DNA of 64,000 nt, taken from positions 1 to 64,000 of IMG/VR virus record IMGVR_UViG_3300033571_019537. One strand, 5' to 3'. Positions within the stretch are counted from its first letter, which is position 1. Each line of letters begins with the position of its first letter. Below the pieces are notes generated by a model that was given only the letters and a program-made list of their open reading frames with translations, was not told where the DNA came from and made no database searches. A program made the translations under genes and the position numbers. Below, one piece after another: positions 1 to 63,050 of this stretch. Source of the stretch: a virus.

Positions 1-45
1 AATGATGGACAAAATAATTGTTTGTTATATTTATAAATAAAATAA

Positions 46-582: not shown

Positions 583-592
583 AGGATTTTGG

Positions 593-2194: not shown

Positions 2195-2212
2195 AATAAA
2201 ATTTGATTTTTA

Positions 2213-2244
2213 GAAATCTAAGTAAAAAAAACATAAAAATCAAA
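2213..2244 (-). promoter_or_regulatory. Bacteroidota-type -33/-7 promoter for the 593-2194 gene
   Basis: Read on the minus strand: TTTG (2244-2241), 20 nt, then TAGATTTC (2220-2213), 18 nt before the ATG. The spacing matches the Bacteroidota TTTG-N19-21-TAnnTTTG pattern; the last base of the -7 box differs. The same TTTGATTTTT context recurs at 4022, 14245 and 16496. The region also forms a 12-bp inverted repeat (2200-2211 with 2235-2246), so it could double as a terminator for the upstream gene. Confidence 0.45.
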
Positions 2245-2263
2245 TTAATTGATTTATTTTGCA

Positions 2264-3286
2264 TTAAGTAATTGAACCTAAATCAATACCTTGAAGAATT
2301 ATTTTCGCTGGTAAAGATGAGTTGGTTTTAACAATCGCAATTGATAATTGAGAATCTAAAAATCCATCAAAGGGTAAAGAAACGTTACTATTATTAATTT
2401 TAAATTGATAAGATGATATATTTTCTAATGTAACTTCTGAAAATTTATAATTAGAATCTAAAAAAGTAAAAGTTGATGTTAGGGGTACTTCAAAATAAAA
2501 ATAAAGTGTAGTTTCATTACCATTTTTATCAAATACTGGACGTCTTATTAACGAATTTGTTAATTCAGTAGTTAAAAAAGAACGATTGATTGTTGGAACT
2601 AATTCAACACGACTAAATTCAGATGTATCCATTAAATAACACTCACAATCTATATCAAAAGTAATATGATAAAATCTTTTATTTTCATTATCAATTTGAC
2701 TTTCATCACTTGTTCCATTCCAAAGAAGGGGAAAGTAATGACCATTTACCAAAATATAACTTTGTCTTGATGTAAATTGTTGTGCCATTATTCTATTTAT
2801 CATATTTATTTCTCTCATTTTTGTTGAGAAAAAAGAAATTTGATATTTCATTATTATTCTTGGTGGTTGTGGAATTTTGTAAATATCCACACCCTTTCTA
2901 TTACCATCCCATATAGGTAATTTGATAAAAGGAAAAGTCTTTCTATCAGGAATTGTGAAATCATTTTCCATTAATTCAACATTTGGTTGTCTTACAATTG
3001 ATAAAAATGGTATTTTTATATTTTCAAACTCATCAGTAAATTGCCAGGTTTTAGTGAATTCACCCCATCTTTGTATGGTTAAAAATATTACAGGTATTTT
3101 TTCATCACCAACAGTAAGTGGTAATTCATTAAAATAATTAATTACTTCCCTATCTATATCTTCATGTAATACTGATTGGGGTAAGAAACCATTATTCCTT
3201 GTAACTCCATTCCAATATTTAAACCTTAAATCTTTGTATGCAATTTCAGGTTGTATATTAATATTTTTCTTTCTTGGTGATGCCAT
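2264..3286 (-). CDS. gp15-like tail-sheath stabiliser/tail completion protein (probable)
   Basis: 340 residues. The central part has the layout I associate with T4 gp15-type tail terminators. A KIPVIFLTIQRWGEF strand-turn segment (around residue 63) is followed by IKIPFLSIVRQPNVE. A hydrophobic PPRIIMKYQISFFS strand comes next, then a helix (MREINMINRIMAQQF) and a GHYFPLLW strand with ITFDIDCECYL. These features suit a ring protein on the tail tube and sheath end. Its start overlaps the 3' end of the gene at 3258-3581. A gp3-type terminator is an alternative. The call rests on pattern resemblance, not on a catalytic motif. Confidence 0.5.
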   Translation of the reverse strand: MASPRKKNINIQPEIAYKDLRFKYWNGVTRNNGFLPQSVLHEDIDREVINYFNELPLTVGDEKIPVIFLTIQRWGEFTKTWQFTDEFENIKIPFLSIVRQPNVELMENDFTIPDRKTFPFIKLPIWDGNRKGVDIYKIPQPPRIIMKYQISFFSTKMREINMINRIMAQQFTSRQSYILVNGHYFPLLWNGTSDESQIDNENKRFYHITFDIDCECYLMDTSEFSRVELVPTINRSFLTTELTNSLIRRPVFDKNGNETTLYFYFEVPLTSTFTFLDSNYKFSEVTLENISSYQFKINNSNVSLPFDGFLDSQLSIAIVKTNSSLPAKIILQGIDLGSIT

Positions 3287-3581
3287 TTATATATAAATAT
3301 TCTTTCACCAAATAAAATATAAATATAATAAAACCAGATATTAAGAATATTTTTGAATAAAAATTGTTTATACCATAAAAATCGGAAAACATCCATAGTA
3401 TATTCATTACAGTCCAATTTGCAAATATTGTTTCTATTGAAATTAATTTTGATTCTTTTAAAACTAAAATAGTTAAAATAATTGTAGGTATTACCATAAA
3501 AGTACCAACTAATTTAATACCTAATAACCAAAAAATATCCATAATTAACCATGAAAAATGTAATAAATCTTTTATTTTCAT
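3258..3581 (-). CDS. Small integral membrane protein
   Basis: 107 residues with about four hydrophobic helices: LLHFSWLIMDIFWLL, FMVIPTIILTILVL, TVMNILWMFSDF and IFLISGFIIFIFYLV. The basic C-terminus (ITKKEKY) is probably cytoplasmic. Its ATG overlaps the TGA of the AdoMetDC-like gene upstream (ATGA), so the two are translationally coupled. No family recognised. Confidence 0.6.
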   Translation of the reverse strand: MKIKDLLHFSWLIMDIFWLLGIKLVGTFMVIPTIILTILVLKESKLISIETIFANWTVMNILWMFSDFYGINNFYSKIFLISGFIIFIFYLVKEYLYINGITKKEKY

Positions 3582-3985
3582 TTGTTACCTGATTCTATAA
3601 CTTTTATATCTTTATTTCTATCTATTAACATCCATTCATAAGATACTAAATCAAATTTGTTAAGATGTTCAATAACTTCTTCTGGAGTAAAACAAGAACA
3701 AGAATAAAGGTCAAATTGAAACATTGGTGGTGTTGTAGAATCCCACACATGCATTGAAATTTGAATTCCAGCATGACTAGTTGCAAGTGTAACTGAACCT
3801 AAAATAGTTCCAGTTAAACCTTCATTACCTTCTTCCTCAACATATACAGAAGTGGGTCCTGCAACAACTTTCATTCTTACTTTTTCAACTAATTCAATAA
3901 ACCATTTATTTAATTCTTCTTCTTTCATTGGTGGGTTATTAATAAACCCTTTAACCAAAATGTGTAGGTGGTTTGGTACAAACAT
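3578..3985 (-). CDS. S-adenosylmethionine decarboxylase-like protein
   Basis: 135 residues, the usual size of class 1 bacterial/archaeal AdoMetDC. The N-terminus MFVPNHLHILVKG gives the first beta strand. TSH (69-71) stands where the family has the E-S-H self-cleavage site. It is followed by ISMHVWD (His79, matching the catalytic His of the IHTWPE segment) and FDLYSCS (Cys96, matching the catalytic Cys in the DxFxCG segment). These enzymes cleave at the Ser to form a pyruvoyl cofactor and make decarboxylated AdoMet for spermidine synthesis. Two oddities: Glu is replaced by Thr at the cleavage site, and there are about four extra residues between Ser and His. It may therefore be an inactive or repurposed AdoMetDC fold. 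No spermidine synthase is in the window. Confidence 0.65.
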   Translation of the reverse strand: MFVPNHLHILVKGFINNPPMKEEELNKWFIELVEKVRMKVVAGPTSVYVEEEGNEGLTGTILGSVTLATSHAGIQISMHVWDSTTPPMFQFDLYSCSCFTPEEVIEHLNKFDLVSYEWMLIDRNKDIKVIESGNK

Positions 3986-4021
3986 ATTTTTTTGTTAATA
4001 AATATATAGTAAAAAAATAAA

Positions 4022-4053
4022 TTTGATTTTTTAATTTTTTTTATTTAAGTTTC
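4022..4053 (+). promoter_or_regulatory. Bacteroidota-type promoter for the 4068 gene
   Basis: TTTG (4022-4025), 20 nt, TAAGTTTC (4046-4053), then 14 nt to the ATG at 4068. Same architecture and TTTGATTTTT context as the minus-strand promoter of the paralogue at 593-2194. Confidence 0.45.
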
Positions 4054-4067
4054 TAAAAAACTTTTAC

Positions 4068-5645
4068 ATGTTTTACATAAATGACACTTTAAAAAACACC
4101 TTAAAAAATAACCGTACAACCTCAATTATTTGTTCAGATTTATATCATGTAATAACTATGAACAAAAAGGACTTTTTTAATTCTGAATTTTATGATGTTA
4201 GGTTGATTGATGGAACTATTCATTACCTTTTAAAAGAAGGTAAAAAAACCGAAGTTATAAAACCAGGTAGATTTGTTATGAAGTTTTTTAATAAAAAATA
4301 TCTTGATAAAGATATAGAAATATTCTCAAATATTTGTTCATCAAAAAGAAAGGTTGGTGAGGTTTTAGAGTTGGTTGAGGGAAATAATATACCTTATTAT
4401 TATTTAGAATATAATTACTCTTTAGAATATGGTAAAGTTGGAACTTTGTGGAAATCTTGTATGCGTCAAGAAGAAAAACAAAAGTTTTTCAAAATTTATG
4501 TAAATAATCCTGAAAATGTTAAAATGTTAACACTTTCAATAGATGGACTTGTTGAAGCAAGAGCATTGGTTTGGCATGGTGTAACTGATTTAATGGGTAA
4601 TAAATATAATTTAATGGATAGAATTTATACCATTAAAGATAATCAAGTACAAATTTTTAAGAATTGGGCATTTGATAATAATTTATATGTTAAAATGGAA
4701 CAAAACCATAAAGAACATAGATTTATCAACAAAGAAGGTAATATTTTAGATAAAGAATTATTATTACCTATTAAATGGGATGGTTATGAAAGGTATCCAT
4801 ATTTTGATACTTTTAAATTCTTGAATGAAGGTTATGATAAATTATCAAACCAAACAACCAAAAAAATTGTAAGATTTTTTCAGTCAACAAAAGGTTATGT
4901 TCTTCAAGGGGTTTTTTGTTCTTGGACAAAAGAATATATTAATTCTGAAAAGGCAGTTAAGACCTTTGATGGTAATTTTTGTAATTCAAAAGATGCAATT
5001 AGGTCAGATTTTTATGATTGTTATGGCGCACCTGATACTATGGTATATTCTTCTTTTTATAAGTGGATTCCTACTTATAAAGGTATTTGGTCAGATTTTT
5101 ATAAAACAACTATAATAAAAGAAAATTCAATTTATAGTGAATATATAAACTCATATATCCCAAAAGAAAATTCAGTAATAATTAATGGTAATGTTTATGA
5201 TAAATCTCAAGTTTTTTATTCAAAAACCTATAATACCTATGTTTTTAAAGATGATGTAGTTTCTGCATTCATTTATTATGGTGAACAACCAATCATTGAC
5301 TTTTTATTTAAAGATGATTGTGTTATGATAGGTGACAAATTCTTTATAAAAAAAGATTGTGTAAAAATAGGTAATGAATGGTTCGTAAAAAAACATTTGG
5401 GTAAAGATAATAAAGTAATGGGGGAATATGAGGATTTTTATTCTAACAAAGAAAAATATAATAATATTAATAATTTTAAAGATTTATTATTATATTCAAA
5501 AGTTTTAGAAAATAAAAACATACCCAAATCAAAAGGAAAACCTAAAAAATCTGATTTAAAAGTTAAAAATATATATAATTTGTTAACTGAACGAAGAGAT
5601 GAAAGAAGGGAAGTGAACTTTTTAGAAGAAGAAGATGAAGGATAA
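4068..5645 (+). CDS. Phage protein of the TLWKSCM family (copy B)
   Basis: 525 residues, paralogous to the 593-2194 product. TLWKSCM lies at residues 126-132 (Cys131), followed by VEARALVW, NLMDRIYTI and RYPYFDTFKFL in the same order and spacing. The C-terminal part is a series of short beta-hairpin-like repeats (VMIGDKFFIKKD, VKIGNEWFVKKH), ending in a charged helix with an acidic tail (EEEDEG). Function unknown. Two copies within 5 kb, in opposite orientations and under similar promoters, point to duplication followed by divergence. The next gene starts 2 nt after its stop. Confidence 0.75.
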   Translation: MFYINDTLKNTLKNNRTTSIICSDLYHVITMNKKDFFNSEFYDVRLIDGTIHYLLKEGKKTEVIKPGRFVMKFFNKKYLDKDIEIFSNICSSKRKVGEVLELVEGNNIPYYYLEYNYSLEYGKVGTLWKSCMRQEEKQKFFKIYVNNPENVKMLTLSIDGLVEARALVWHGVTDLMGNKYNLMDRIYTIKDNQVQIFKNWAFDNNLYVKMEQNHKEHRFINKEGNILDKELLLPIKWDGYERYPYFDTFKFLNEGYDKLSNQTTKKIVRFFQSTKGYVLQGVFCSWTKEYINSEKAVKTFDGNFCNSKDAIRSDFYDCYGAPDTMVYSSFYKWIPTYKGIWSDFYKTTIIKENSIYSEYINSYIPKENSVIINGNVYDKSQVFYSKTYNTYVFKDDVVSAFIYYGEQPIIDFLFKDDCVMIGDKFFIKKDCVKIGNEWFVKKHLGKDNKVMGEYEDFYSNKEKYNNINNFKDLLLYSKVLENKNIPKSKGKPKKSDLKVKNIYNLLTERRDERREVNFLEEEDEG

Positions 5646-5647
5646 TT

Positions 5648-6010
5648 ATGAAAACATTTTTTACAGTAGAAGAATTAAAACAAGAAGAACTTTATAAGGT
5701 TGGTGATTTTATTTGCAACCCAACAATGTGGTCTTGGAAAGATAAACCACTTAATTCAAAAGTTGAGGATGGTTATTTTGGGGTTGTATTAAAGGTTGAA
5801 ACTAATGAAAAAATTCATGTTAAATTTTATAATATAAAAGAAACATCAATAGATTTTGATTATGAGGAATTGGATTTTGATTTTGATGGGAAACCTGAAA
5901 AAATGACTGGTGAAGAAATATTATTCTTTATAAAAAGATATGAAGAATTTCTTAAATTTTTGGGTACTGATTTATTAAAATTAAAAATCGAAAGTTCTTT
6001 ATTTAATTAG
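5648..6010 (+). CDS. Small protein with the FFTVEE N-terminal tag
   Basis: 120 residues. It starts MKTFFTVEELKQEE, which belongs to a set of closely similar N-termini in otherwise unrelated proteins here (18769, 26199, 43889, 44575, 56783, 57804, 59475). The rest contains an SH3-like beta segment (VGDFICNPTMWSW...GYFGVVLKV) and an acidic stretch, then a C-terminal helix (GEEILFFIKRYEEFLKFL). It is in an operon with the TLWKSCM gene just upstream. No known family. Confidence 0.6.
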   Translation: MKTFFTVEELKQEELYKVGDFICNPTMWSWKDKPLNSKVEDGYFGVVLKVETNEKIHVKFYNIKETSIDFDYEELDFDFDGKPEKMTGEEILFFIKRYEEFLKFLGTDLLKLKIESSLFN

Positions 6011-6018
6011 ATTTTTCA

Positions 6019-6765
6019 TTAAATATTTGCATTTTCTTCTATTAATTTAAAAATAGTTTCTACTCTTTTGATAATAGGGTTTCTAACAATTTCATTTGTA
6101 TCAAACTCAATAACACCAACACTTTCTTCTGGTTTAAAATATTTAATCAGAGTTTCTAATGTGTTTTTTTTCAATTTTTTATTATCTACTTGATTAGAAT
6201 CTCCTAATAATATTACTTTACTACCATCACCTATCCTAGTTAATATTGTGCGCACATTTTCTATACTTACGTTTTGAATTTCGTCAGTAATTATAATAGT
6301 ATTATCCCAACTTGTTCCTCTTAAATACCCTAAAGGAAATTCCTTTAACATATTAAAATTTTTTAATTTGTTATAATTTTCTCTACCTATTAATTTATTA
6401 ATATTATGTATAAATGAAAAAAGTATTGGTTCGAGCTTTGAGTCCAATTCACCTTTGAGGTGCCCAAGTGATTCATTATCAAGGGTTTGTACTGATTTTG
6501 TAATTAATATTTGATTAACCTTTCCAGTACGTAACAATTCAAGAGCAGCGTACATTGTTGTTAAAGTTTTACCAACTCCAGGACTTCCGTTAACAATTAC
6601 AATATCCTTTTCATTTATTGTATTGATTAATTCCTTTTGTTTTTGAGTTTTAGGTTTAAAATTTATCTTGATTTTATCAACATTACCAGGTTCGGTAAAA
6701 AAATTTACAGGTGTAATATCATAGATTTCATCCTGCAAATCAAATTTCTGTTTTCTTCTTCCCAT
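6019..6765 (-). CDS. phoH: PhoH-like P-loop ATPase
   Basis: 248 residues, full length for the phage PhoH family. Walker A GSPGVGKT is at 60-67, Walker B with TDEIQN at 160-165, and a GDSNQVD sensor-like motif at 188-194. PhoH proteins are RNA-helicase-like ATPases, very common in large phages, with a role that is still uncertain (RNA or phosphate-stress metabolism). It is the last gene of the minus-strand run that starts with the sugar cluster and ends convergent with the 5648 gene. The call is secure; the function in infection is not. Confidence 0.93.
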   Translation of the reverse strand: MGRRKQKFDLQDEIYDITPVNFFTEPGNVDKIKINFKPKTQKQKELINTINEKDIVIVNGSPGVGKTLTTMYAALELLRTGKVNQILITKSVQTLDNESLGHLKGELDSKLEPILFSFIHNINKLIGRENYNKLKNFNMLKEFPLGYLRGTSWDNTIIITDEIQNVSIENVRTILTRIGDGSKVILLGDSNQVDNKKLKKNTLETLIKYFKPEESVGVIEFDTNEIVRNPIIKRVETIFKLIEENANI

Positions 6766-6774
6766 ATAGTATAG

Positions 6775-7494
6775 TTAATAATAAATATCTAATTTTTTGA
6801 ATTCTTTTATAGTTTCATTATTCAAATTCAAAACTTCTAAAGTTATTAAATCTTTATATTCATATTTTTTTAATAATTTAAAAAAATCAATATAATATTC
6901 AAAATTATTTATATTTTCAAGTCCAATTTTAGAAATATGTATATGTTTAATATAATCTTTATATGATTTATATTCTTCAATGAAATCTAATTCCTCTAAT
7001 TCAGAATTATGAGTATCTATCATAGTTTTTATGTTCTTAAAATCATTTTGATTTATAAAATCCACAATTTCTTTTATTGTAAAGAAATATTGTCCACCAT
7101 ATATTTTTGCATTAGGTTCAATACAGACTTTTATATTAGTTTCTTTTAACTTTATATCCAAATTATTAAAGATTGTATTTAAGTGTCTTAAATCATCTTT
7201 ATGACGTAATTTGGGTGAACCAAGTACTAAAGTATTTATACCCATTTCTTTGGATAAATTAATTAAAAAATCAAAATGTTTTAAAAATCTTTCATCAGAG
7301 AAAGAAAGACATTCAACACCATAAAATATTGATTGTGCAGATAATGTTTTTAAATCATATTTTTTCAATAATTTCCTATATTCTAAATCTACTTTATTAG
7401 GTATGGTTTCAATAAAATTTAAACCTTGTTTTTTTATTTCACTAAAGAAAAGTTCATTATTATCCCAACCTATATTACTTACTGTTAAATTCAT
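6775..7494 (-). CDS. Sugar-phosphate isomerase/epimerase-like TIM-barrel protein
   Basis: 239 residues with the xylose-isomerase/AP-endonuclease-2 barrel pattern: N-terminal strand LTVSNIGWD, LGSPKLR after the third helix, IKVCIEPNA (metal-ligand Glu), TMIDTHNS (Asp/His), HIHISK and a final LEV. These residues build the metal site in this fold. It overlaps the epimerase gene upstream by 20 nt. With four neighbours it forms a carbohydrate operon, so it probably isomerises or epimerises an activated-sugar precursor. Substrate unknown. Confidence 0.7.
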   Translation of the reverse strand: MNLTVSNIGWDNNELFFSEIKKQGLNFIETIPNKVDLEYRKLLKKYDLKTLSAQSIFYGVECLSFSDERFLKHFDFLINLSKEMGINTLVLGSPKLRHKDDLRHLNTIFNNLDIKLKETNIKVCIEPNAKIYGGQYFFTIKEIVDFINQNDFKNIKTMIDTHNSELEELDFIEEYKSYKDYIKHIHISKIGLENINNFEYYIDFFKLLKKYEYKDLITLEVLNLNNETIKEFKKLDIYY

Positions 7495-10955: not shown

Positions 10956-12725
10956 ATGTTCATTAATGAAGTTGAGATAAATCCAAATTACATACAAACA
11001 GTAGTTGACAAAATCAATTCTTTTTTAGAAAAAAAAGGATATAGACAACGATTCAAAAAAAATATTAGGGATGGGAATTATCACAATGCTAGATATTATC
11101 AAGTATTTTTTGATTGGGATTCAGGAAGATTGGTATCTGATGAAGAAGAAAAAGAAATAGAACAATTTTTAAAAAGAATACAAAATAAAATCTATAAGGA
11201 TATGAATATCTTAATGGTATTTAATGTTCTACCTTCATCAATAACAATTAATTTCAGAAATTGGTATTTTAAACGAATGAAACCGCCAAAATATTTATAT
11301 CATTCAACTCGTTCTTTGGATTCTGTTAAGGAAATACTAAAAAATGGTTTAATTCCAAAGGAAACTGATTTTAAAAAATGGAGTAAATCTCTTGCATATC
11401 CTAAATTAATTTTTTTTGAAACTGAACCATCAAGACATAGATGGGGACAATATGTTTTTAAGATTGATACAGAAAAATTACCTGACCATAAATTTTATAC
11501 TGATATTAATTTAGATGCAAGAGGTGAAGGTATTGTTGGTGGTCGGGATATGTACTCAATGGTTACTAATAAATCAATACCTTCTGATAAAATTGAATTA
11601 TTAAATAAAGAACATGTTAGTCAGTTTTTAGATGAGGGATTGAATTTAAAATCTAGAGCAAGTGAACAAGAAAAACAAAGGGAAGAATATATTAGAAATA
11701 TTCTTAAAAAAGATTTGAAGGATATAACAGAATCAGATTTGAGTTTTGTGGTAGTTAATTCAAATATACGAACAAACCCCTTTTATAAAGAATTTTTAAC
11801 TTTAATGTATGATAAAATAAAAAACTATTTTAGGAATGAAGGTATAGAAGTCGTTGATAAAACAATATCTACTTCTGATTATCCTGGTTTATTATTTTTG
11901 GGTAATGAATATCATGGTGAATTTATGATGTGGTACATAAATGGTAAGTTCTTAATTTCTTATAAAGGTAGCCGATTTTATACTTATAGTGGTAAACAAT
12001 TAATTGATACTGTAATTGCATCATTAAAACCAAAAAACAAAATCAAAAAAAATATTAAAGAATCTTTAAATCTAAAATCTCGTGCAAATGATAATTTAAA
12101 ACAAAAGGCAAATTATATAAAACAAAAAGGAATAAATGATGAAACAAGGGATTTATTTATGAAGGATTTTGAAGTGAATAAAGATTTATATTCTGTAATG
12201 GATGAAAGAACAATGTTGGAAATTGAGTATTATGTTAAAAACTATAAAGAAATGATTTTAAGAATAATTCCAATTGATTCAGAAGGAAATATTCAACATG
12301 ATTTATTAAGAGATATTATGTATGAAGAAAATATAAGTCTTAATAAAATGATGGATTTAATTGATGCAAGAGAACAACTTTGGATGAAAGAAAGGAGGGA
12401 TGAATTAAAGTGGGAAGTTGAATATCTTTTGGATGAAGAATTTAATGAAGTACCAACATTTCAGGAATTTTACCAACTATTTAAATCATTAGATAGGGAT
12501 TATACTTATAGTGAAAATGAAGTTAGGAATGTATTCTTATCTTTGACTACCAATCCAAATCAATTAAGTTTATTTGAAAACGAAAAACAATATAAGTTAA
12601 TATATGCACCAACTGGTCAGATTATTATAAAAGGACATTATAGATTGTGTAATTGGAAATTAAGTGAATTAAAAAAAACAAAACCAACAAGTGAAGTTTC
12701 TAAATATAAAATTGTAAGATTATAA
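10956..12725 (+). CDS. Modular protein with ADP-ribosyltransferase-like domain and two LKSRA modules
   Basis: 589 residues. It starts MFINEVEI, a short N-terminus with I-x-E like the T4 Alt leader. An ART-like domain spans about 108-222: KYLYHSTRSLDSVKEIL with Tyr-His, GLIPK at 131-135, KLIFFE at 150-155 and IPSDKIELL, as in KptA/DarT-type folds. Two copies of the dispersed LNLKSRA motif begin at residues 229 and 371, each directly after [LI]-x-E (FLDE, NIKE). The C-terminal part (about 390-589) is helical and ends in a beta-rich segment; no family recognised. Inference: an internal head protein cleaved into parts and injected, comparable in logic to T4 Alt. It ends one base before the convergent glycosyltransferase. 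Confidence 0.65.
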   Translation: MFINEVEINPNYIQTVVDKINSFLEKKGYRQRFKKNIRDGNYHNARYYQVFFDWDSGRLVSDEEEKEIEQFLKRIQNKIYKDMNILMVFNVLPSSITINFRNWYFKRMKPPKYLYHSTRSLDSVKEILKNGLIPKETDFKKWSKSLAYPKLIFFETEPSRHRWGQYVFKIDTEKLPDHKFYTDINLDARGEGIVGGRDMYSMVTNKSIPSDKIELLNKEHVSQFLDEGLNLKSRASEQEKQREEYIRNILKKDLKDITESDLSFVVVNSNIRTNPFYKEFLTLMYDKIKNYFRNEGIEVVDKTISTSDYPGLLFLGNEYHGEFMMWYINGKFLISYKGSRFYTYSGKQLIDTVIASLKPKNKIKKNIKESLNLKSRANDNLKQKANYIKQKGINDETRDLFMKDFEVNKDLYSVMDERTMLEIEYYVKNYKEMILRIIPIDSEGNIQHDLLRDIMYEENISLNKMMDLIDAREQLWMKERRDELKWEVEYLLDEEFNEVPTFQEFYQLFKSLDRDYTYSENEVRNVFLSLTTNPNQLSLFENEKQYKLIYAPTGQIIIKGHYRLCNWKLSELKKTKPTSEVSKYKIVRL

Positions 12726-14217: not shown

Positions 14218-14248
14218 TAAATCTAATGATGAATTAAGAAAAATCAAA
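14218..14248 (-). promoter_or_regulatory. Bacteroidota-type promoter for the two-domain glycosyltransferase
   Basis: Minus strand: TTTG (14248-14245), 19 nt, TAGATTTA (14225-14218), only 4 nt before the ATG at 14213, so the transcript would be nearly leaderless. A second TTTGATTTTT arm on the plus strand at 14268-14277 makes a 10-bp inverted repeat with 14239-14248. Confidence 0.4.
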
Positions 14249-14348
14249 TCTTTTAAACTTGATATATTTTGATTTTTTTAGATTTTCTTTTGTGAACATA
14301 AAAACCTCATTATCAGAAAAAACAGTTTTTGCAAACCAACCGTATAAA

Positions 14349-14370: not shown

Positions 14371-14460
14371 TTTCCTAATTCAACGAGCATCTATTGATAA
14401 CTCTCCAAAGGCGTTAATTCCCCACTACGAATGGGTATTTTATTTAAAATTCTTTTTCCC
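14371..14460 (-). ncRNA. Remnant of TnpB right end / omega-RNA 3' scaffold
   Basis: On the minus strand, the 3' end of the tnpB fragment and the 20 nt beyond it read GGGGAATTAACGCCTTTGGA ... GCTCGTTGAATTAGGAAAT. This closely follows the conserved 3' end of many IS200/IS605 tnpB loci, where the RNA scaffold overlaps the end of the gene and finishes near GTTGAAnnAGGAA before the guide. Its conservation here, with most of tnpB gone, is notable. Assignment is from remembered family pattern; activity is not implied. Confidence 0.4.
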
Positions 14461-14792
14461 TCATTTAATATATTAATCGAGGCATTTAAATCTCTATCAT
14501 GATGTGTTCCACAATTGTTGCAAATCCATTCTCTATCAGATAATTTTAAATTATCATTTTTTTCACCACAACTGGAACATAATTTCGATGATGGATAAAA
14601 TCTATCAATTTCAATAATTTGTTTTCCATACCAATCAGATTTATATTTTAATATTTGTTTAAATCTATAAAGACTTAATTCCTGAATGGATTTTGCCAAA
14701 TTACTATTTTTCATCATCCCTGAAACATTTAAATTCTCCATTTCCAAACCAATCAAAGAAAGTAATTCTTTAACACTTTCCTTATCTTGCAA
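14391..14792 (-). pseudogene. TnpB C-terminal half fused to an ART-like gene fragment
   Basis: 133 codons from a TTG (the frame stays open a little upstream). The first ~14 residues, preceded in frame by KKIYLL, match the segment after RIYLL in the ART-like protein at 24206-24898. From about residue 16 it becomes TnpB: MENLNVSGMMKN (RuvC-II Glu), YRFKQILKYKSDWYGK, DRFYPSSKLCSSCG with CNNCG (zinc ribbon), HDRDLNASINIL (RuvC-III Asp) and GELTPLES at the end. The N-terminal part with RuvC-I and the RNA-binding lobes, about two thirds of TnpB, is missing. This is a recombinational chimaera and should be inactive as a nuclease. Confidence 0.85.
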
Positions 14793-15169
14793 TAAATAAA
14801 TCTTTTTTTGGTGATATGGTATAATATATTATTTTTTGGTCTAACTTCAACATCAAACTTTGGTTCAAAAACAATAAACACTTTATTAGTTTTATCTTCC
14901 AAATAAAAATCAATAAATTCTTTTTTAAATTTTTTATGAGTTAAATAACTACCTTCTTCTAATATTCTTAATGAAGAAGGGAAATAACCTAAATTATTTG
15001 TTAAGGTAAGAATTTCTGGTAGTTGTTCAGAATTAATTAAAGGAATTAGAAATTGTGAATTATTGGATGGTTTTGGATTGAATTTTTTTAAGATTTGCAA
15101 AACCTTTTCTTTGGGTTGAATTTTAATCAACCCTTCATTTAGAATAAACTGTAATTTGGTAAAAATCAT
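14753..15169 (-). pseudogene. Truncated ART-like protein, homologue of the 24206-24898 product
   Basis: 138 codons. It aligns over most of its length with the 24.2-kb protein: FILNEGLIK versus ILKEEEGLIK, NNLGYFPSSL versus DNLGWFPAYI, and FDVEVRPKNNILYHIT versus YDVKYIPENNIFYHIT. Right after YHIT, the first catalytic motif, the frame changes at a run of seven A (around 14802-14808) and ends in an unrelated tail. The homologous continuation (KIYLLQDKESVK) resumes in the next frame in the TnpB chimaera. About 28 codons with the GLVPK segment are deleted. The protein lacks the ART active site, so decay is the likely interpretation. Confidence 0.75.
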
Positions 15170-15181
15170 ATTCCATAAATA

Positions 15182-15712
15182 TTAATTCCACCAATTTTCA
15201 ATTTTGTGTGCAAGATAGTTAAATAAAATTCTTTTGCATTTGTCATGTTTATATAAGGAAATATCCATTGATATTGACTTTTTTTCCTCAACTGAAAAAC
15301 TTTCTGAATCCAACAAATCAATATTTTTTGAGAAAATTCTGTTCATTCTTTTTAATGATGATTTATTTTTATTAATATATTCATCATAATTTTCTGAAAT
15401 TAAAGTTGTTTTAATATCGTTATCAAGAAATTCATATTTATATTCTCCATAGTTTAAATATTCATCAAGATATTCTTCATTTTTAAATTTATCAATTAAT
15501 TTTATAACCAAATTTATTTGATTAACAACGTTTAAATCATCATAACTTTTAAAACGTTCTTTTTTTAATTGCAATTTAAATTTTAAAATATCTAATGTAT
15601 AAACATAATCATAATCCCTATCTTTTATTAAAAGGGGAATCCATTTAATTATTCTTTTAAATAAAAACCAATAAAGTTTTATTTTTTTTATTTTTGTTAT
15701 CAATTTATTCAT
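15182..15712 (-). CDS. Conserved phage protein of unknown function (DYDYVYTLDILKFKL motif)
   Basis: 176 residues. The basic amphipathic N-terminus (KIKKIKLYWFLFKRIIKWIPLLI) is followed by KDRDYDYVYTLDILKFKL, which I recognise as a recurrent motif in large-phage proteins without assigned function. The rest is helical and charged. Its start overlaps the 3' end of the gene at 15705-16001 by 8 nt. The N-terminal helix may be a peripheral membrane anchor. Confidence 0.65.
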   Translation of the reverse strand: MNKLITKIKKIKLYWFLFKRIIKWIPLLIKDRDYDYVYTLDILKFKLQLKKERFKSYDDLNVVNQINLVIKLIDKFKNEEYLDEYLNYGEYKYEFLDNDIKTTLISENYDEYINKNKSSLKRMNRIFSKNIDLLDSESFSVEEKKSISMDISLYKHDKCKRILFNYLAHKIENWWN

Positions 15713-16001
15713 TTAAAAAAATATTATATGATAAATTTGCAAATGTATTTTTTCTAACAGAAAATTTTTCATCATAATATTTTTCATCATAATATTTTGA
15801 ATAATATTCAAAATGACCTCCACATTCTCTTATTTTTTTATGATAATTTCTATTATATAAAAATTCAGTAAAATTATCATATTTTTTATAGACATAAATT
15901 TTATCTTTTAATATTTCAAACCAAACCTCATCACCTTTTTTCAGATTAAAAAATCCTTTATGTGATTTTTTTAAATTTAATATGGTTTTATTCAGATTCA
16001 T
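15705..16001 (-). CDS. Small protein with the MNLNKTI leader
   Basis: 98 residues. The N-terminus MNLNKTILNLKKSHKGFFNL is almost the same as that of the 16132-16461 product (MNLNKTISNLRKSKHSFFNL) and resembles MTLEKTLLNL at 23694 and MTLKRTFENIKK at 60509. After the leader the proteins diverge. It contains KKGDEVWFEILKDKIYVYKK, an SH3-like beta segment, and a Tyr/Lys-rich YYDEKYYDEKF direct repeat. Function unknown. Confidence 0.6.
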   Translation of the reverse strand: MNLNKTILNLKKSHKGFFNLKKGDEVWFEILKDKIYVYKKYDNFTEFLYNRNYHKKIRECGGHFEYYSKYYDEKYYDEKFSVRKNTFANLSYNIFLNE

Positions 16002-16131: not shown

Positions 16132-16461
16132 TTATTTATTTAAAAAACAAAACCATTCTTCTGGTACTGGTTTATATAAACAATTAAAAGGAATGTAAAT
16201 ATAATCATTTGTTGTTGGTTCGTAAATTTTAAAAGACATAATTAAAGGATTATTTTCATATTCAAAAGTTTCGATATATTCCCAATTTTTTCTTATATAA
16301 GAATTAAGAACAAATACTTCATCTTCATTAATATCATATACTTTTGCATTATAAGATACCCCTACTTTTAATAGGTCATAGTTAATATAACAATCAGAAT
16401 TTAAGTTAAAAAAACTATGTTTTGACTTTCTTAGATTAGAAATGGTTTTATTCAGATTCAT
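16132..16461 (-). CDS. Small protein with the MNLNKTI leader (second copy)
   Basis: 109 residues. It shares its first ~20 residues with the 15705-16001 product, then has a different body with beta strands (VGVSYNAKVYDINEDEVFVL, LIMSFKIYEP) and ends YKPVPEEWFCFLNK. First gene of a minus-strand mini-operon with a promoter directly upstream and next to the distal end of the CRISPR array. Function unknown. Confidence 0.6.
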   Translation of the reverse strand: MNLNKTISNLRKSKHSFFNLNSDCYINYDLLKVGVSYNAKVYDINEDEVFVLNSYIRKNWEYIETFEYENNPLIMSFKIYEPTTNDYIYIPFNCLYKPVPEEWFCFLNK

Positions 16462-16523: not shown

Positions 16524-17161
16524 TCAATTCCAATTAAAGGATTAATATAAAACTACAACAATAAAAATGAATTTAACTACAGCAGATATATTTTGATTCC
16601 ACTAAAGATTTAATATAACTAATATAGACTACAATGATAAACGTTGTCTCTTGCGTCTAACGTATGTTGTGATTCCACTAAAGATTAATATAGACTACAA
16701 TAAATGTAAATAATTAGAATCCAAACCAATGTTGTAATTCCACTAAGGATTAATATAGACTACAATCTTTCGATTTGTATCATGTCACATCATCTTGTTG
16801 TGATTCCACTAAAGTTTAATATAGACTACAATTAAAACCCTGTAAAATCAATGTTTTTGGGGTTGTGATTCCACTAAAGTTTAATATAGACTACAATAGA
16901 ACTTGCAGACCAAATACAAGATGTTCGGTTGTGATTCGATTAAGGATTAATATAAACTGTAATCACTTTATAGTTCGAGTCTTTGAGTATGTCGTTGTGA
17001 TTCCACTAAAGTTTAATATAGACTACAATTCCATCAGGTAGTACAAAACCTGTACAAAGGTTGTGATTCCACTAAGGATTAATATAGACTACAATTCCTT
17101 CACCTTTTCCTATTGGTGACCCAAAGTTGTGATTCCACTAAGGATTAATATAGACTACAAT
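16524..17161. CRISPR. CRISPR array: eight good repeats plus two degenerate ones at the left end
   Basis: 36-nt repeats begin GTTGTGATTCCACTAAAG and end ATAGACTACAAT on the plus strand. They lie at 16666, 16731, 16797, 16862, 16928, 16994, 17060 and 17126 (each 36 nt); spacers between them are 29 or 30 nt. Two more repeat-like units lie to the left: 16591-16635, with about 9 extra bases inside, and about 16524-16559, strongly decayed. The unit at 16928 also carries several changes at both ends. Repeats differ at an inner position (AAAGATT, AAGGATT, AAAGTTT). Decay at the left end suggests that is the old (trailer) end, so the leader would be near cas6 and transcription on the minus strand; the plus-oriented terminator-like hairpin at 17170 argues the other way. 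Terminal TTGT/ACAA can pair within each repeat. Confidence 0.97.
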
Positions 17162-17169
17162 GTAATACC

Positions 17170-17263: not shown

Positions 17264-17962
17264 TTAATCCTGGTTTCTGTAAGTTTTATGATTTTCGGTT
17301 TTGTATATTGTACCAAAACCACTACCAGTAGATTGTCCAATTCCTATGTTGTATAAGGTTTCTGCAACTTTTTTGTTACAGAAAATATTAACTTGACATT
17401 GATTTGCAAAGTTAATAACATTTTTAACCAAAATTTGTTTAACTTTGTTTGATTTGTTATCACCAATTTTAACATCAAAATCAGTTAAATCCAAATCATA
17501 AGGAATTAATTTCTTTTTAAGATATTCCTTTAATTTTTCCTCAAAGTTTTCATCTTTAAGGGTTAAAAATTTATATCTTCCATCATTATACTCCTTAACA
17601 ATAAAGGGTGATAATGCTGCAAAATAATTCCAACCATCATGAAAATTTTCCTTAATATAATCCACACCAACAAAACTCATTCCAAATCCAAAATTAGGAT
17701 TTTTCATAACACCCAATAAGAAAGTTGTTATTAATTCATCATCCAATGATGATACAGTAATAAATCCACCATTAGGGAAAGATAAGGTTTGTTTGTCATT
17801 ATTCATTTTTCCACCTCTTAGGGAAGAAATCGAATAGTTGGACTTTTTATCGTGCCACTTATTATTTTCACCCAATATCTTATGAATCCAAGAATTTAAT
17901 AGGGTTTGGTTTTGAATTGGAACATTAGTTTTGTTCTTGCTTAAATTTATTTTTATTCTCAT
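17264..17962 (-). CDS. cas6: Cas6 crRNA-processing endoribonuclease
   Basis: 232 residues, typical for Cas6. It has two ferredoxin-like halves. Near the N-terminus WIHKIL supplies a candidate catalytic His27 (His37 is an alternative). YSISSLRGG at 43-51 and the FAALSPFIVK strand at 114-123 are typical of the family. The C-terminal glycine-rich loop GIGQSTGSGFG at 207-217 is the Cas6 signature. It cleaves repeat RNA to give mature crRNAs and usually stays bound to the 3' hairpin. It is the last gene of the cas operon, overlaps cas5 by 38 nt, and lies next to the array. Confidence 0.88.
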   Translation of the reverse strand: MRIKINLSKNKTNVPIQNQTLLNSWIHKILGENNKWHDKKSNYSISSLRGGKMNNDKQTLSFPNGGFITVSSLDDELITTFLLGVMKNPNFGFGMSFVGVDYIKENFHDGWNYFAALSPFIVKEYNDGRYKFLTLKDENFEEKLKEYLKKKLIPYDLDLTDFDVKIGDNKSNKVKQILVKNVINFANQCQVNIFCNKKVAETLYNIGIGQSTGSGFGTIYKTENHKTYRNQD

Positions 17963-18779
17963 AATACTTTGTTAAATTTGTTTTTTCTGAATTAATTTCA
18001 TTAACAGATTGAAACCCATCCCAATCAATTTGATTTTCACTAAAAACCCCTTTTATCCATACAAAACCACCATCAAGAATTGTTCCATTTGCTCTTGATA
18101 ATTTTGATAAATCTTCATCACTTACTGGAATAATTATTTCACCATGATGTTTTGTTATATTAACAGGGGCAGTTAAAACAGTTCTCATTGTTCTTGAGTT
18201 TTTATTTATATTTGCTCTTTCTTGTTTATTATCACTATAAACATAATCATAAATAGGTTTTTTACCCTTTACATTTAACAAATAGTTTTTAATAACCCCA
18301 TTTTCCCTAATAATTGGAATCCATTCATTAAATGATTTTTCCAAAGGATTAAAACCATATTCTTTTTTCATTAATGAAATAAAATCATCATAATTTTCAT
18401 CCAACATTTGTTTCACTTTTTCCCAATAAATCCAAACGTTAGGATTCCAAGAATTCCATGCAGACTTTTTAATCTGCATGGTTTCATAAACAAAATTATT
18501 ATTTATTTTTAAAGAATCAAGTTTAATATAAGAATTATTTGCCTTATCAAAATAATAATCAATTCTTGGAATTAAGGTTTCCCTTAATGTTGGTGATGGT
18601 CTTTCACCAAAAAGAACATGAAGAAGATTTGATACCTGATATTTTGTTATAGGTTCTTCAAAAAAATCAATATCATCCCTATCCCTTGTACCATTTATAT
18701 CACCAACTTTATCCTTATATTTTCCAGGTCTAAATTGTCTAGCATTTTTAAAACCCAATACCAAAAATTTATTCTTCAT
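17925..18779 (-). CDS. cas5: Cas5-like Cascade subunit (probable)
   Basis: 284 residues. The N-terminal strand KFLVLGFKNARQFRPG looks like the RAMP/Cas5 start. Next comes FFEEPITKYQVSNLLHVLFGERPSPTLRE (read in parts), where Cas5 proteins typically place 'PTxR/K' residues. Near the C-terminus, LDGGFVWIKGVF is a glycine-containing strand. In type I effectors Cas5 caps the crRNA 5' handle. Position between cas7 and cas6 fits. It is somewhat longer than many Cas5 proteins, which may matter because no separate large subunit is seen. A type IV Csf3-like relation is possible; subtype cannot be fixed by eye. Confidence 0.6.
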   Translation of the reverse strand: MKNKFLVLGFKNARQFRPGKYKDKVGDINGTRDRDDIDFFEEPITKYQVSNLLHVLFGERPSPTLRETLIPRIDYYFDKANNSYIKLDSLKINNNFVYETMQIKKSAWNSWNPNVWIYWEKVKQMLDENYDDFISLMKKEYGFNPLEKSFNEWIPIIRENGVIKNYLLNVKGKKPIYDYVYSDNKQERANINKNSRTMRTVLTAPVNITKHHGEIIIPVSDEDLSKLSRANGTILDGGFVWIKGVFSENQIDWDGFQSVNEINSEKTNLTKYYENKNKFKQEQN

Positions 18780-19854
18780 TTTTCTTTCCTTTTTTTGATT
18801 CTTTTTTCTCAGCAGATTTTTTCTTTCTGTTTTTATATTCTACTTCAATTGATTCTCTTAATTCTTTACTTTTCTTTAAATCAACTTCATTATAGAATAA
18901 TTCTGATTCAAATTCCAATTTTGTTTGTGGTGTAAATTTAACCCAACCATTTTCATCTTCTAATGTATCAGTTAATACATCATAAACAAATTTAACTTCC
19001 AATTCATTTGATTTAACAAATGCATCTCGTTTTGTTACATTTAATCTTAACATTTTTTGTAACAAATCATTAACCAAAAAGTTAACATTTTCTTGACTTA
19101 ATAAGAATCCCCATTCAGGTATTTCAATGATTGAATTTTTCATTTGGAAATAACCTAATTCTGAATTAAAGTTTGGTAACTTTGTTTGCAAGAATTTCTT
19201 AAACAATTCAAAATTGTCTGGGTCAAATGACATTCTATCAAAAATATCATCACAACTAACAAATTGTAATTGTGATAAATCAATTGAACCAACGGTTTGA
19301 TAATCAATATCACCAACAACTTCTTTTTTGAAGAAAGTATTATCGGTTGCACCATTATCTTCATCATCTTTTCTACCAGATTTTGCAAAAGTTTCAATAT
19401 GTGAAACTGAATCATTTGTTTGTTCTGCATCAACCAAAGTTAAAGAACCTTTTCTTTTTAAGGTAACTGTTTTTGATGTTTCCAACCAACCTCTAACCAA
19501 TTTTGATGGTGATGCAAGATAAGAATGTAATACCACCACATTATCTTGAACATTTGGTGATTGGAATGGAATATCAGAAAAAATATTATGCAATAAGAAA
19601 TCTGATGAAGTTGTTAACTTATAAGAAAATTTATCACCATTCTTATAAAGTCTTTTCTTTGCATAATTGGTGTTTTTATGTTGGGTTTTCATGTAACTCA
19701 AATCAGTACTATTAAGTACAAATCTTTGGTCAGATGAATCAAAGTTTACAACACCCCTACCTTTTAATTTCCATCTTAAAAGAATAGATTTAACTGTTTT
19801 TTCTTTTTGTTTTGGTTGAACTTCCTCAACCGAAAATACTGATTTTTTTGACAT
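18769..19854 (-). CDS. cas7: Cas7-like backbone subunit with FSVEE N-terminus
   Basis: 361 residues. RAMP-type features: ILLRWKLKGRGVVNF strand, HSYLASPSKLVRGWLET (the segment that in Cas7 proteins contacts crRNA), a middle disordered acidic loop (RKDDEDNGATDN), VVGDIDYQTVGSIDLSQLQFV, and a very basic helical tail (KNRKKKSAEKKESKKGKK). Cas7 polymerises along the crRNA spacer. It lies between cas3 and cas5 and overlaps cas5 by 11 nt. Its N-terminus, MSKKSVFSVEEVQPK, resembles the short FFTVEE tag found on unrelated proteins in this window, which is odd for a Cas protein. Called Cas7 from fold features and operon position. Confidence 0.65.
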   Translation of the reverse strand: MSKKSVFSVEEVQPKQKEKTVKSILLRWKLKGRGVVNFDSSDQRFVLNSTDLSYMKTQHKNTNYAKKRLYKNGDKFSYKLTTSSDFLLHNIFSDIPFQSPNVQDNVVVLHSYLASPSKLVRGWLETSKTVTLKRKGSLTLVDAEQTNDSVSHIETFAKSGRKDDEDNGATDNTFFKKEVVGDIDYQTVGSIDLSQLQFVSCDDIFDRMSFDPDNFELFKKFLQTKLPNFNSELGYFQMKNSIIEIPEWGFLLSQENVNFLVNDLLQKMLRLNVTKRDAFVKSNELEVKFVYDVLTDTLEDENGWVKFTPQTKLEFESELFYNEVDLKKSKELRESIEVEYKNRKKKSAEKKESKKGKKNEE

Positions 19855-19884
19855 TTTTTTGTTTGTTTTTTATGGTTATTAAAT

Positions 19885-22098
19885 TTATTCGGTATCTATT
19901 AATCCTAATTCAGAATCATATTTTTTATCATACCTTATATAAGGTGTATTTGATTTTTTCCCCATTCTACGAACAATATCAATATTTAATTTTTCAAATT
20001 TTTCCAACATTTCTCTGAATTCAAATCGTTTATCATCACAAAGTGCTCGATATGTTTTTTTGAATCTTTCCATTACATTTTGTTTTTCATGGAAATCTTC
20101 ACCAATTGATTTATATATTTGTTGGTTAAAAACATCAGTATATTCTTCTGAATTAACTTTTTGACAAATATAAAATATATTTGAACCAACAAGTCTTAGT
20201 TTATTTGATTCTGCGTTTTTAATATCAGTTTTTTGTTTTCCTTTATTAAAAAATTTAATAGGATAAATTCCACTTAATAATTCACAAGAAGTAAGAAATC
20301 TTTCTTGAATAAAGTCTTTAATTTCTTTTTGATTTATTTCATTGAATTTATTAAATATAGAATAAATTTCTGACAAAGTCAAATTCTTGTTATTTCCATT
20401 TTCTTTAAAGAAATTAAACCATTTAGTTGATAAGTCAAATGTATAATGAATGTGTTTTACTGCACGTTCTGCCTTATCCTTATTAAGATTAATAATATTA
20501 ATAGTACTATCATCATATTTACCCCAACGATTTGTTCTACCTATTCTTTGTACTGTTGTTTGTGGTGATAAAACTGATTCATATAAATTTTTAAAAGAAA
20601 TATCCATTGATGCCTGTAAAATAAGTGAAGAAACAACATCTTCTTTTACACCATCTTTTGAATATTTATCATATAAAGAATAAATTAAATCAGTTCTTTT
20701 CTTTCTATCTTCTTCTAAATAATCAGAATGAATTAAAATTTTCTTATTTAAGTTTCTATACACTTTTTGGGTATTCTTAATAGAATTTAAGATGATTAAA
20801 TTATCACCATTTTCTTCTAAGTTTAAAACTGAAACATCAGATTTTTCAGAAAAATTAAGTTTATATTTTTTATCATGTGCAGGTGGGTAATGATGATTTT
20901 TCTCTGGTAAGAATTTTGATTTATTTGATGGGGTATCCCACATATAAGAAATATCAAATGGTGTTGCAGATAATAGAATTGTATCAGAATTAGTATATTT
21001 ATGTCTAATATTCATTAAGTTAATAAAACAAGAAAATAATGCACCTTCTGTAATTAATTCATGATATTCATCAAAAACAACATCACAATCATTTATAAAA
21101 TAAAGTTCATTCATTCTTCCACTATTAACTGATGGGGATAAAAAGTTATCTATATTAGTTACAATAATATCAGAATCAAACCCACCACATCCATTCCAAT
21201 TAGACATTTTCACTTCACTTTGGTAGAATAATTCAATTTTAACATTAACACAGAATTTACCAATCAAATCTTTTAATTCACGATAAACTTGTTCTGCAAC
21301 AATATTTCTTGGACAAACCCAAATCATTTTTTTATTTGATTGTAGATTTTTTAGAAATCCAATTAAAGTTTTACCAAACCCAGCAGGTGCATTAACAAAA
21401 TTAGTACCTTTAAGTTGTGTAACAATATTTTTTTGAAGTTCAAATCTTTCATTATTAAATGGTGGATTATAATTTTTTACTATTTCCTTTTCCAAGAGTT
21501 TTTGGATAAATTCTTCTGAATTAGGATAATTACCATCAAATGATGAAACCAATCTATCAGATGTAATTAAAATACTTCTTAATAAAGTTTTTTCAACTTG
21601 TTTTCCTTTTAATTCCAAAAATTCATAAAAAAGTGGTGGATTTATTTCTTTTCTACCATTATCATCCACAAAACATTTTTTTGTTATTGGAAACTTTAAG
21701 AAATATTTCTTCATTGATTCAATATCTTTTTCAGTAATTGAATCATAAACATCTTGATTTGTTAATTTTTTATCGCCATATTTTTTAAAATAAGGAAACC
21801 CATGATGCCAATAAATTAAATCCAATATCATATTATATTCATAATCATCAATTTTTAAATGTTTGCTAACAAATGCCCAACTGATTTCATTATGAGTAAA
21901 TTTTCTTTGTGAATCTTCATCTTTTAAGAATCTTTGGAACTCTTCTGTACATTTACCTATATCATGTAAAAGTGATGATATTTCTAAAACTTTTTTATGT
22001 TGTTTATTAAGACTATCATATCTTTTTAAAAACTCTAAAGAATATTCCATTACTTTTAAAGAATGTACATCTAATAATTCGTTTGTTTTTCCTAACAT
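19885..22098 (-). CDS. cas3: Cas3 HD nuclease-helicase
   Basis: 737 residues, a fused HD-helicase. HD domain: His12, LLHDIGK (His45-Asp46), THNE (His69) and WHHG (98-99), the metal ligands of Cas3 nucleases. Helicase: Walker A APAGFGKT at 237-244, DEYH box at 343-346 (usually DExH), LLSATP at 375-380, and motif VI QRIGRTNR at 517-524. All catalytic residues appear intact. Cas3 is recruited by Cascade to unwind and degrade target DNA. It is the first gene of the cas operon with a clear promoter 19 nt upstream. Being transcribed first, ahead of the effector genes, it is not a remnant. Confidence 0.95.
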   Translation of the reverse strand: MLGKTNELLDVHSLKVMEYSLEFLKRYDSLNKQHKKVLEISSLLHDIGKCTEEFQRFLKDEDSQRKFTHNEISWAFVSKHLKIDDYEYNMILDLIYWHHGFPYFKKYGDKKLTNQDVYDSITEKDIESMKKYFLKFPITKKCFVDDNGRKEINPPLFYEFLELKGKQVEKTLLRSILITSDRLVSSFDGNYPNSEEFIQKLLEKEIVKNYNPPFNNERFELQKNIVTQLKGTNFVNAPAGFGKTLIGFLKNLQSNKKMIWVCPRNIVAEQVYRELKDLIGKFCVNVKIELFYQSEVKMSNWNGCGGFDSDIIVTNIDNFLSPSVNSGRMNELYFINDCDVVFDEYHELITEGALFSCFINLMNIRHKYTNSDTILLSATPFDISYMWDTPSNKSKFLPEKNHHYPPAHDKKYKLNFSEKSDVSVLNLEENGDNLIILNSIKNTQKVYRNLNKKILIHSDYLEEDRKKRTDLIYSLYDKYSKDGVKEDVVSSLILQASMDISFKNLYESVLSPQTTVQRIGRTNRWGKYDDSTINIINLNKDKAERAVKHIHYTFDLSTKWFNFFKENGNNKNLTLSEIYSIFNKFNEINQKEIKDFIQERFLTSCELLSGIYPIKFFNKGKQKTDIKNAESNKLRLVGSNIFYICQKVNSEEYTDVFNQQIYKSIGEDFHEKQNVMERFKKTYRALCDDKRFEFREMLEKFEKLNIDIVRRMGKKSNTPYIRYDKKYDSELGLIDTE

Positions 22099-24205: not shown

Positions 24206-24898
24206 TTAATTTATAATTTCTATCCAATCAGGATGTAAATTTGATTCTGTATATATTCCCTTTTCAGGAAAATTTGTATCATTATAAAATTTTATCCCAT
24301 TTAATTTTTCTTGTGGTATAGTTATTCTTAAAACAATAGGTTTAATATTATATTGATAACTAAACACATCTATTAAATCATTTATAGATTCTTCATTTAT
24401 TAATAAATAAATTCTACTTGGATGTGATGATATTTTTTCCTTACTTTTTGGTACTAAACCAATCTTCATAATTTTATCAATATACTTATCAGAAGTTATA
24501 TGATAAAAAATATTATTTTCAGGAATATATTTAACATCATATTTTGACTCAAATTTAACCATTACTTCACCAAATTCTTCTAAAAACATTTCTAAATTTG
24601 GTTGACTATATTTTGCACTTTGTCCTTTATATTGGATATATGCAGGAAACCAACCTAAATTATCTACTAATCTAAATAATTCTACTAAGTTGGTTTCCTT
24701 AGTAATTTTATAAACAAACCAATTTTCAATATCAGATTTTATAATTAACTTTGTTCGTTCCAAATCCATCTCACCTTTAATCCAATTATTGATTAAAGTT
24801 ATTGTATGATTAATATTTGTAGTTTTTATTAAACCTTCTTCTTCTTTTAAAATAGATTTAATAAATTCTTCTTTAGTGAAAGTTATTTTCTTAGACAT
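24206..24898 (-). CDS. ADP-ribosyltransferase-like (KptA/DarT-type) protein
   Basis: 230 residues from the ATG at 24898 (ATGTCTAA overlap with the upstream stop; the longer form needs TTG). The N-terminal ~120 residues form a helper domain ending FESKYDVKYIP. The ART-like domain follows: NIFYHITSDKYIDKIM with Tyr-His at 132-133, GLVPK at 147-151, SRIYLL at 161-166, and GIYTESNLHPDWIEII at the C-terminus, where the Glu could be catalytic. Fold logic is that of RNA 2'-phosphotransferase and DarT enzymes, which use NAD. Intact relative of the broken copy at 14753-15169. Target unknown. Confidence 0.6.
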   Translation of the reverse strand: MSKKITFTKEEFIKSILKEEEGLIKTTNINHTITLINNWIKGEMDLERTKLIIKSDIENWFVYKITKETNLVELFRLVDNLGWFPAYIQYKGQSAKYSQPNLEMFLEEFGEVMVKFESKYDVKYIPENNIFYHITSDKYIDKIMKIGLVPKSKEKISSHPSRIYLLINEESINDLIDVFSYQYNIKPIVLRITIPQEKLNGIKFYNDTNFPEKGIYTESNLHPDWIEIIN

Positions 24899-25394
24899 TT
24901 TCCTCAATTACGGTTTGTTTTTTCTCAACCCTCCATACACCCATTCTTCTTTCATCAATTTGTCTAGCAATGAATTTCCATCCCCTACCTTTTGACCAAT
25001 TTGATGCATAAGAACAAATTGTTTTAAATTGTTTATCATTTTTAATTGGTATTACCGCACATTTACCTGGGGCATCCAATAAATTAAATTTATATTTGGA
25101 CATTCTTTCCATTGGTCTTTTTCTTTCAGGAATTGCAAGTCCTTCAACAATAATTGGTTTATCATAATACTCATCATATTTGTTTTCCAATTCTTTAATT
25201 AAAACATCACTTACTTCATTTCTGTACATTCCTTCAATTAAATCAAAAACATGTCCTACAAAGTCTTTATGTAACCCAAGTTTTTCACTTTCTTGCGACA
25301 TTGATGTTCCGTTTGCAATTGCAGATTTAATAATTTCAATTGCAGTTACAACTCTTTTGTTTCTTTCTTCTGGTGTTAATTTTTTGATAATCAT
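24891..25394 (-). CDS. Putative DNA-binding regulatory or structural protein
   Basis: 167 residues. A helix-turn-helix-like segment lies at about 28-55 (ANGTSMSQESEKLGLHKDFV, with the turn around SEKLGLHK). The C-terminal part WSKGRGWKFIARQIDERRMG is basic and aromatic. No clear family. It sits mid-operon between the ART-like gene and small unknown genes. Could be a nucleic-acid-binding protein; confidence in being a gene is high, in function low. Confidence 0.55.
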   Translation of the reverse strand: MIIKKLTPEERNKRVVTAIEIIKSAIANGTSMSQESEKLGLHKDFVGHVFDLIEGMYRNEVSDVLIKELENKYDEYYDKPIIVEGLAIPERKRPMERMSKYKFNLLDAPGKCAVIPIKNDKQFKTICSYASNWSKGRGWKFIARQIDERRMGVWRVEKKQTVIEENV

Positions 25395-63001: not shown

Positions 63002-63050
63002 AATGCATAAATATAATAAATTATTCCAAAAATTAAAATATTTATTCTAT

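What the first reader, a model, noticed from the sequence alone, without database searches (positions are those of the whole stretch)
14391..15169. ART-like gene broken and fused to the C-terminal half of a TnpB
The N-terminal part of an ART-like gene (14753-15169) matches the intact gene at 24206, then loses about 28 codons including the GLxP motif, shifts frame at a run of seven A, continues as KIYLLQDKESVK (matching RIYLLINEES), and passes into TnpB from the RuvC-II Glu to the end. This is a record of an IS200/IS605-type insertion or recombination into an effector gene.
Basis: seen in the sequence. Interest (0 to 1): 0.6.

Follow-up and report, generated by a model that had tools for sequence, protein, structure and literature searches.

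The report
Dead phage gene joined to transposon relic
In this phage genome one copy of an ADP-ribosyltransferase-like gene has lost its core and is joined to the tail end of a TnpB (transposon nuclease) gene; it is an ordinary genetic scar and almost certainly makes no working enzyme.

Summary
ORF 14753-15169 (-) is the N-terminal part of a family that includes the intact gene at 24206-24907 (profile 52 bits, 3e-18). About 24-26 codons with the GLxP motif are missing at an A7 run (14803-14809). The sequence resumes in another frame as KIYLLQDKESVKELLS, which scores as this ART family (0 of 2000 shuffles) and not as TnpB (no score). From the RuvC-II Glu (codon 14736-14738) to 14391 it is the C-terminal third of a TnpB. 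A model of the intact copy finds only Tpt1/KptA structures as its 18 best PDB matches. I add two things: at the ART/TnpB joint there is a 15-nt near-copy (14/15, p about 5e-4) of a stretch 118 nt inside TnpB, the mark of a templated insertion; and the element's noncoding 3' scaffold is still there (79% to L112). Not supported: that ART sequence continues beyond TnpB, so insertion into the gene, rather than a deletion joining neighbours, is unproven. No ART or TnpB catalytic core survives, and no other TnpB was found in this record or in a 173-kb record identical wherever compared. Verdict: a decayed pseudogene; low interest.

The parts
14753..15169 (-). ORF with the N-terminal part of the ART-like gene, up to YHIT, then an out-of-frame tail
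   Evidence: profile of six intact relatives, 52 bits, E about 3e-18; 31% identity to the intact gene, E=5e-11
14803..14809 (-). A7 run where the missing 24-26 codons and the frame change lie
   Evidence: sequence and three-frame translation; a similar ACCAAAAAA stretch at 14823-14840
14757..14807 (-). continuation of the ART gene in the other frame (KKIYLLQDKESVKELLS)
   Evidence: scores as ART (0/2000 shuffles, 0/2000 random) and not as TnpB
14741..14755 (-). 15 nt at the ART/TnpB joint, near-copy (14/15) of 14623-14637: probable templated filler
   Evidence: direct repeat D4; 0.03 matches expected per window; p about 5e-4 by codon shuffling
14623..14637 (-). probable source of the filler, inside TnpB (codes for DWYGK)
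14391..14741 (-). C-terminal third of a TnpB: RuvC-II Glu, TNB zinc finger, RuvC-III Asp, natural end
   Evidence: PF07282 1.3e-25; phrog_506 2.4e-46; 69% identity to full-length phage TnpB in L088
14372..14445 (-). end of TnpB plus noncoding 3' scaffold (omega-RNA region) of the element
   Evidence: 79% identity over 75 nt, E=5.6e-11, to noncoding DNA after tnpB in L112
14349..14368 (-). small hairpin after tnpB, possibly the right-end hairpin of the element
   Evidence: predicted by folding, but no more stable than expected from shuffles (z -0.8); weak
24206..24907 (-). intact paralogue of the ART-like gene
   Evidence: AlphaFold model mean pLDDT 75; 18 best PDB matches all Tpt1/KptA, E 4e-6 to 3e-4

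Best explanation
This is a pseudogene scar. A phage carried an old paralogue of its Tpt1/KptA-like ART gene, with an IS200/IS605-type TnpB element inside it or just beside it. At least two deletions followed. One, ending in an A-run, removed the part of the ART gene that holds the GLxP motif and shifted the frame. The other removed the rest of the ART gene, the left part of the element and the first two thirds of tnpB, and joined ART to TnpB at the RuvC-II Glu. A short near-copy of nearby TnpB sequence at that joint suggests template switching during repair or replication. Neither a working ART nor a working TnpB remains. Shown: the parts, their order, the missing cores, the retained 3' scaffold, the junction repeat. 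Inferred: order of events, where the element first sat, template switching, lack of function.
For: ART identity of both pieces; TnpB identity and the point where homology begins; loss of the ART elements that the model of the intact copy places at residues 140-165 and after about 186; element 3' end retained; junction filler; no other TnpB in the 82-kb or the 173-kb record; no promoter-like sites above chance; 74 of 79 viral relatives of this TnpB have full length and two of the five short ones are cut by contig ends, so this copy is a truncated exception.
Against: The TnpB remnant is open over its whole length with zinc-finger cysteines intact, so it is either recent or, less likely, kept. 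The two records agree exactly, but independence of their reads is not known. No empty site or intact syntenic allele was found, so the history is not seen directly.
Confidence: 0.87

Rival explanations
1. The element inserted into the ART gene itself, and the ART C-terminus still lies after it.
For: Downstream frame 14237-14344 (VFSDNEVFMFTKENLKKSKYIKF) resembles the KptA end by eye (SDNGVWL...PxYI).
Against: Profile tests give p about 0.2-0.3; no match in phages or PDB.
Confidence: 0.3
2. Slippage at the A7 run makes an ART-TnpB fusion protein with a function.
For: A-run of seven followed by an open frame through to the TnpB stop.
Against: Even the fused product would lack the ART core (GLxP region and the last strands) and the TnpB RuvC-I Asp and N-terminal two thirds; no promoter signal above chance.
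Confidence: 0.03
3. The relic is kept as a TnpB C-terminal mini-protein or as an orphan guide RNA that a TnpB in trans could use.
For: 3' scaffold retained; frame intact; a PHROG of short proteins of this kind exists (phrog_17087, 141 positions).
Against: No other TnpB in the phage records; scaffold fold not more stable than shuffles; no conserved relatives of the relic.
Confidence: 0.04
4. Assembly artefact joining two genome parts.
For: Metagenome record; not checked at read level.
Against: A 173-kb record is identical across the joint; TnpB is single-copy in both records, so there is no repeat to cause a misjoin.
Confidence: 0.05

Closest known systems
IS200/IS605-family TnpB (PF07282; NCBIfam NF038281)
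   Same: RuvC-II to C-terminus, TNB zinc finger, natural end and 3' noncoding scaffold
   Different: first two thirds, RuvC-I Asp, left end and any TnpA are absent
Tpt1/KptA RNA 2'-phosphotransferase (ART superfamily; caudoviruses including jumbo phages code for KptA, PMC9503650)
   Same: intact paralogue is predicted to have the C-lobe fold and shares the LYHxT...GLxP pattern
   Different: no KptA N-lobe match, sequence scores below all cut-offs, and the copy at issue has lost the core
phrog_17087 (short phage proteins, unknown function)
   Same: covers the same C-terminal TnpB stretch (E=4.4e-30)
   Different: not known to be joined to an ART gene

Membership tests
IS200/IS605 TnpB | TNB zinc-finger domain and RuvC-II/III | tested here: met
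   PF07282 1.3e-25; C-terminal alignment
IS200/IS605 TnpB | complete RuvC with RuvC-I Asp, WED and REC parts | tested here: not met
   homology begins at the RuvC-II Glu; upstream sequence is ART
IS200/IS605 TnpB | 3' noncoding scaffold/right end | tested here: met
   79% to L112 over 75 nt; exact right tip not determined
IS200/IS605 TnpB | left end and target-site relation | tested here: inconclusive
   the DNA upstream of the relic is ART; target site not recoverable without an empty-site relative
ART superfamily, Tpt1/KptA-like | ART fold | tested here: met
   for the intact paralogue only: 18 best PDB matches all Tpt1/KptA, model pTM 0.59, TM-scores 0.32-0.36 over the query
ART superfamily, Tpt1/KptA-like | KptA sequence family membership | tested here: not met
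   PF01885 12.6 bits against a cut-off of 26; NF002014 15 against 239
ART superfamily, Tpt1/KptA-like | NAD+-dependent activity | not testable with these tools
   needs biochemistry
Nuclease-dead TnpB repressors (TldR; from own knowledge) | near full-length TnpB with mutated RuvC and kept guide-RNA binding part | tested here: not met
   N-terminal two thirds absent

The most novel reading that the evidence does not exclude
The relic is an orphan guide-RNA locus: the retained TnpB tail and 3' scaffold are transcribed, and a TnpB from a co-infecting phage or the host uses this guide.
Probability: 0.03. Interest if true: 0.6.

Novelty: new member of a known kind. Interest (0 to 1): 0.2.

Why it matters
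It is a clear small example of how transposon-borne TnpB genes and fast-evolving ART genes decay in large phages, with a junction that hints at template switching. It also corrects a tempting reading: this is not a new ART-TnpB fusion enzyme. The intact ART-like family, not the scar, is what would deserve work.

Tried and rejected
ART C-terminus after the TnpB relic: looked convincing by eye, failed profile, shuffle and database tests. TnpB origin of the KIYLL segment: rejected. Common ACGG tip of the element's right end: 13 of 64 relatives against 14.9 expected, rejected. More ART relatives in viral contigs: alignment too diverse, single-protein scans found nothing new. Relatives with the same right end: only L112 and the identical record, none in bacterial genomes. 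Syntenic relatives through the glycosyltransferase next door: apart from the identical record they are 49% identical or less, and the ART profile found no ART gene in them. No Rfam match in the window. Searches ended in technical errors; 60 and 62 were repeated as 61 and 64, 82 as 84.

Full report
What is there. On the minus strand, ORF 14753-15169 codes 138 aa and ORF 14391-14792 codes 133 aa in another frame, open from 14828. The first matches the intact gene at 24206-24907 at 31% over 86 aa (E=5e-11) and a profile of six intact relatives at 52 bits, E about 3e-18. The relatives come from this window, from IMG/VR contig 3300040801_000995 (two copies), from two huge-phage genomes (LR756501/LR756502) and from a Lak phage.

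The first lesion. In the intact gene 26 residues stand between YHIT and RIYLL, among them GLVP. In the broken gene only two lysine codons stand there, in an A7 run at 14803-14809, and the frame changes. A similar stretch, ACCAAAAAATAATATATT, lies 28 nt upstream. A single deletion ending in such A-rich repeats would explain both the loss and the shift; this is inference, since no intact allele of this locus is known.

Is the next stretch ART or TnpB? This mattered, because TnpB also has a YL near this distance from its RuvC-II Glu and an aligner will pair the two. I tested it. YHQKKIYLLQDKESVKELLSLIGL scores 10.5 bits against the matching ART block, with 0 of 2000 shuffles and 0 of 2000 random window pieces as high; against a profile of 66 different TnpB segments it gets no score, while a real TnpB segment gets 45.7 bits.

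The TnpB part. From the RuvC-II Glu (codon 14736-14738) to the stop at 14391 the sequence is TnpB: PF07282 1.3e-25, phrog_506 positions 271-376 of 403, NCBIfam IS200_TnpB 1.2e-40. The nearest full-length relatives are in phages: 69% (L088) and 65% (L089) identity. The zinc-finger cysteines and the RuvC-III Asp are there; RuvC-I and everything before are not. The DNA at 14372-14445 is 79% identical to noncoding DNA after tnpB in L112 (E=5.6e-11), so the 3' scaffold of the element has been kept. It does not fold better than shuffles, and I could not fix the exact right tip.

The second joint. The 15 nt at the ART/TnpB joint, TGATTGGTTTGGAAA (14741-14755), has a 14/15 copy at 14623-14637 inside TnpB. 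After codon shuffling of the remnant such a match at the joint arises about once in 2000. A short copy of nearby sequence at a deletion joint is what template switching leaves; this is the reading I prefer, but the mechanism is inferred.

Is there ART sequence after TnpB? By eye the frame 14237-14344 looks like a KptA end. It fails every test: p 0.17-0.33 with three profiles, no hit in phages or PDB. So insertion inside the gene is not proven; a deletion that joined neighbours does as well.

What the ART-like gene is. The model of the intact copy (mean pLDDT 75, pTM 0.59) finds as its 18 best PDB matches only Tpt1/KptA structures (E 4e-6 to 3e-4; TM-scores low, 0.32-0.36 over the query), with DarT1 further down, and a set of viral ART and KptA proteins. 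Sequence libraries give only sub-threshold KptA matches. A survey of viral NAD+ systems reports that several caudoviruses, jumbo phages among them, code for KptA homologues and that most viral ARTs evolve fast (PMC9503650). I therefore call the family 'Tpt1/KptA-like ART fold', not KptA. The word effector remains a guess.

How sure is the sequence? IMGVR_UViG_3300032322_002674 (173,457 bp) is 100% identical over all stretches compared: window 1-7480, 6729-30907 and 30981-64000, and about 6 kb beyond the window. It may share reads with the window's record. Neither record holds another TnpB. Standard stop codons are in use: 45 TAA, 10 TGA and 2 TAG among 57 ORFs, the relic's being one of the two TAG.

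Verdict. A decayed ART-like gene joined to a TnpB tail: a scar of a known kind. Interest low.

Noticed in passing
window 16560-17165 and 17264-22098: Phage-borne CRISPR array next to a compact set of type I genes on the minus strand: Cas6 (TIGR01877 1.8e-22), Cas7fv-like (NF040577 5e-24), Cas3 (TIGR01587 2.9e-24) and one gene without a match (17925-18779); no Cas1/Cas2 was noticed, but none was specifically searched for.
   Followed up: partly
L083:4769-11134: Two ART-like genes lie between the halves of genes interrupted by inteins: a RecA-like gene with intein N- and C-terminal signals (TIGR01445 3.5e-9, TIGR01443 3.4e-5) and a DnaB-like gene, whose intein halves I infer by eye. In LR756502 (L167) the ART-like gene directly follows a RecA-like gene without an intein.
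   Followed up: partly
window 24206-24907, 14753-15169; L083, L167, L168, L169: Members of this ART family share an N-terminal pattern like F..FI..NEGLI, which recalls the head-targeting peptides of T4-like phages (own knowledge). Could mean packaging in the head; not tested.
   Followed up: no
window 10956-12725, 39417-40946, 47292-50894, 62919-63968: A third, more distant KptA-like ORF (10956, phrog_5470 0.0019) shares a stretch around LNLKSRA... with three other ORFs of the window.
   Followed up: no
window 15705-16001 and 16132-16461: Two neighbouring small ORFs are paralogues (about 43-49% over the first 43-68 residues).
   Followed up: no
window 14237-14344: Short open frame right after the TnpB relic that looks like a KptA C-terminus by eye but fails statistical tests.
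   Followed up: yes
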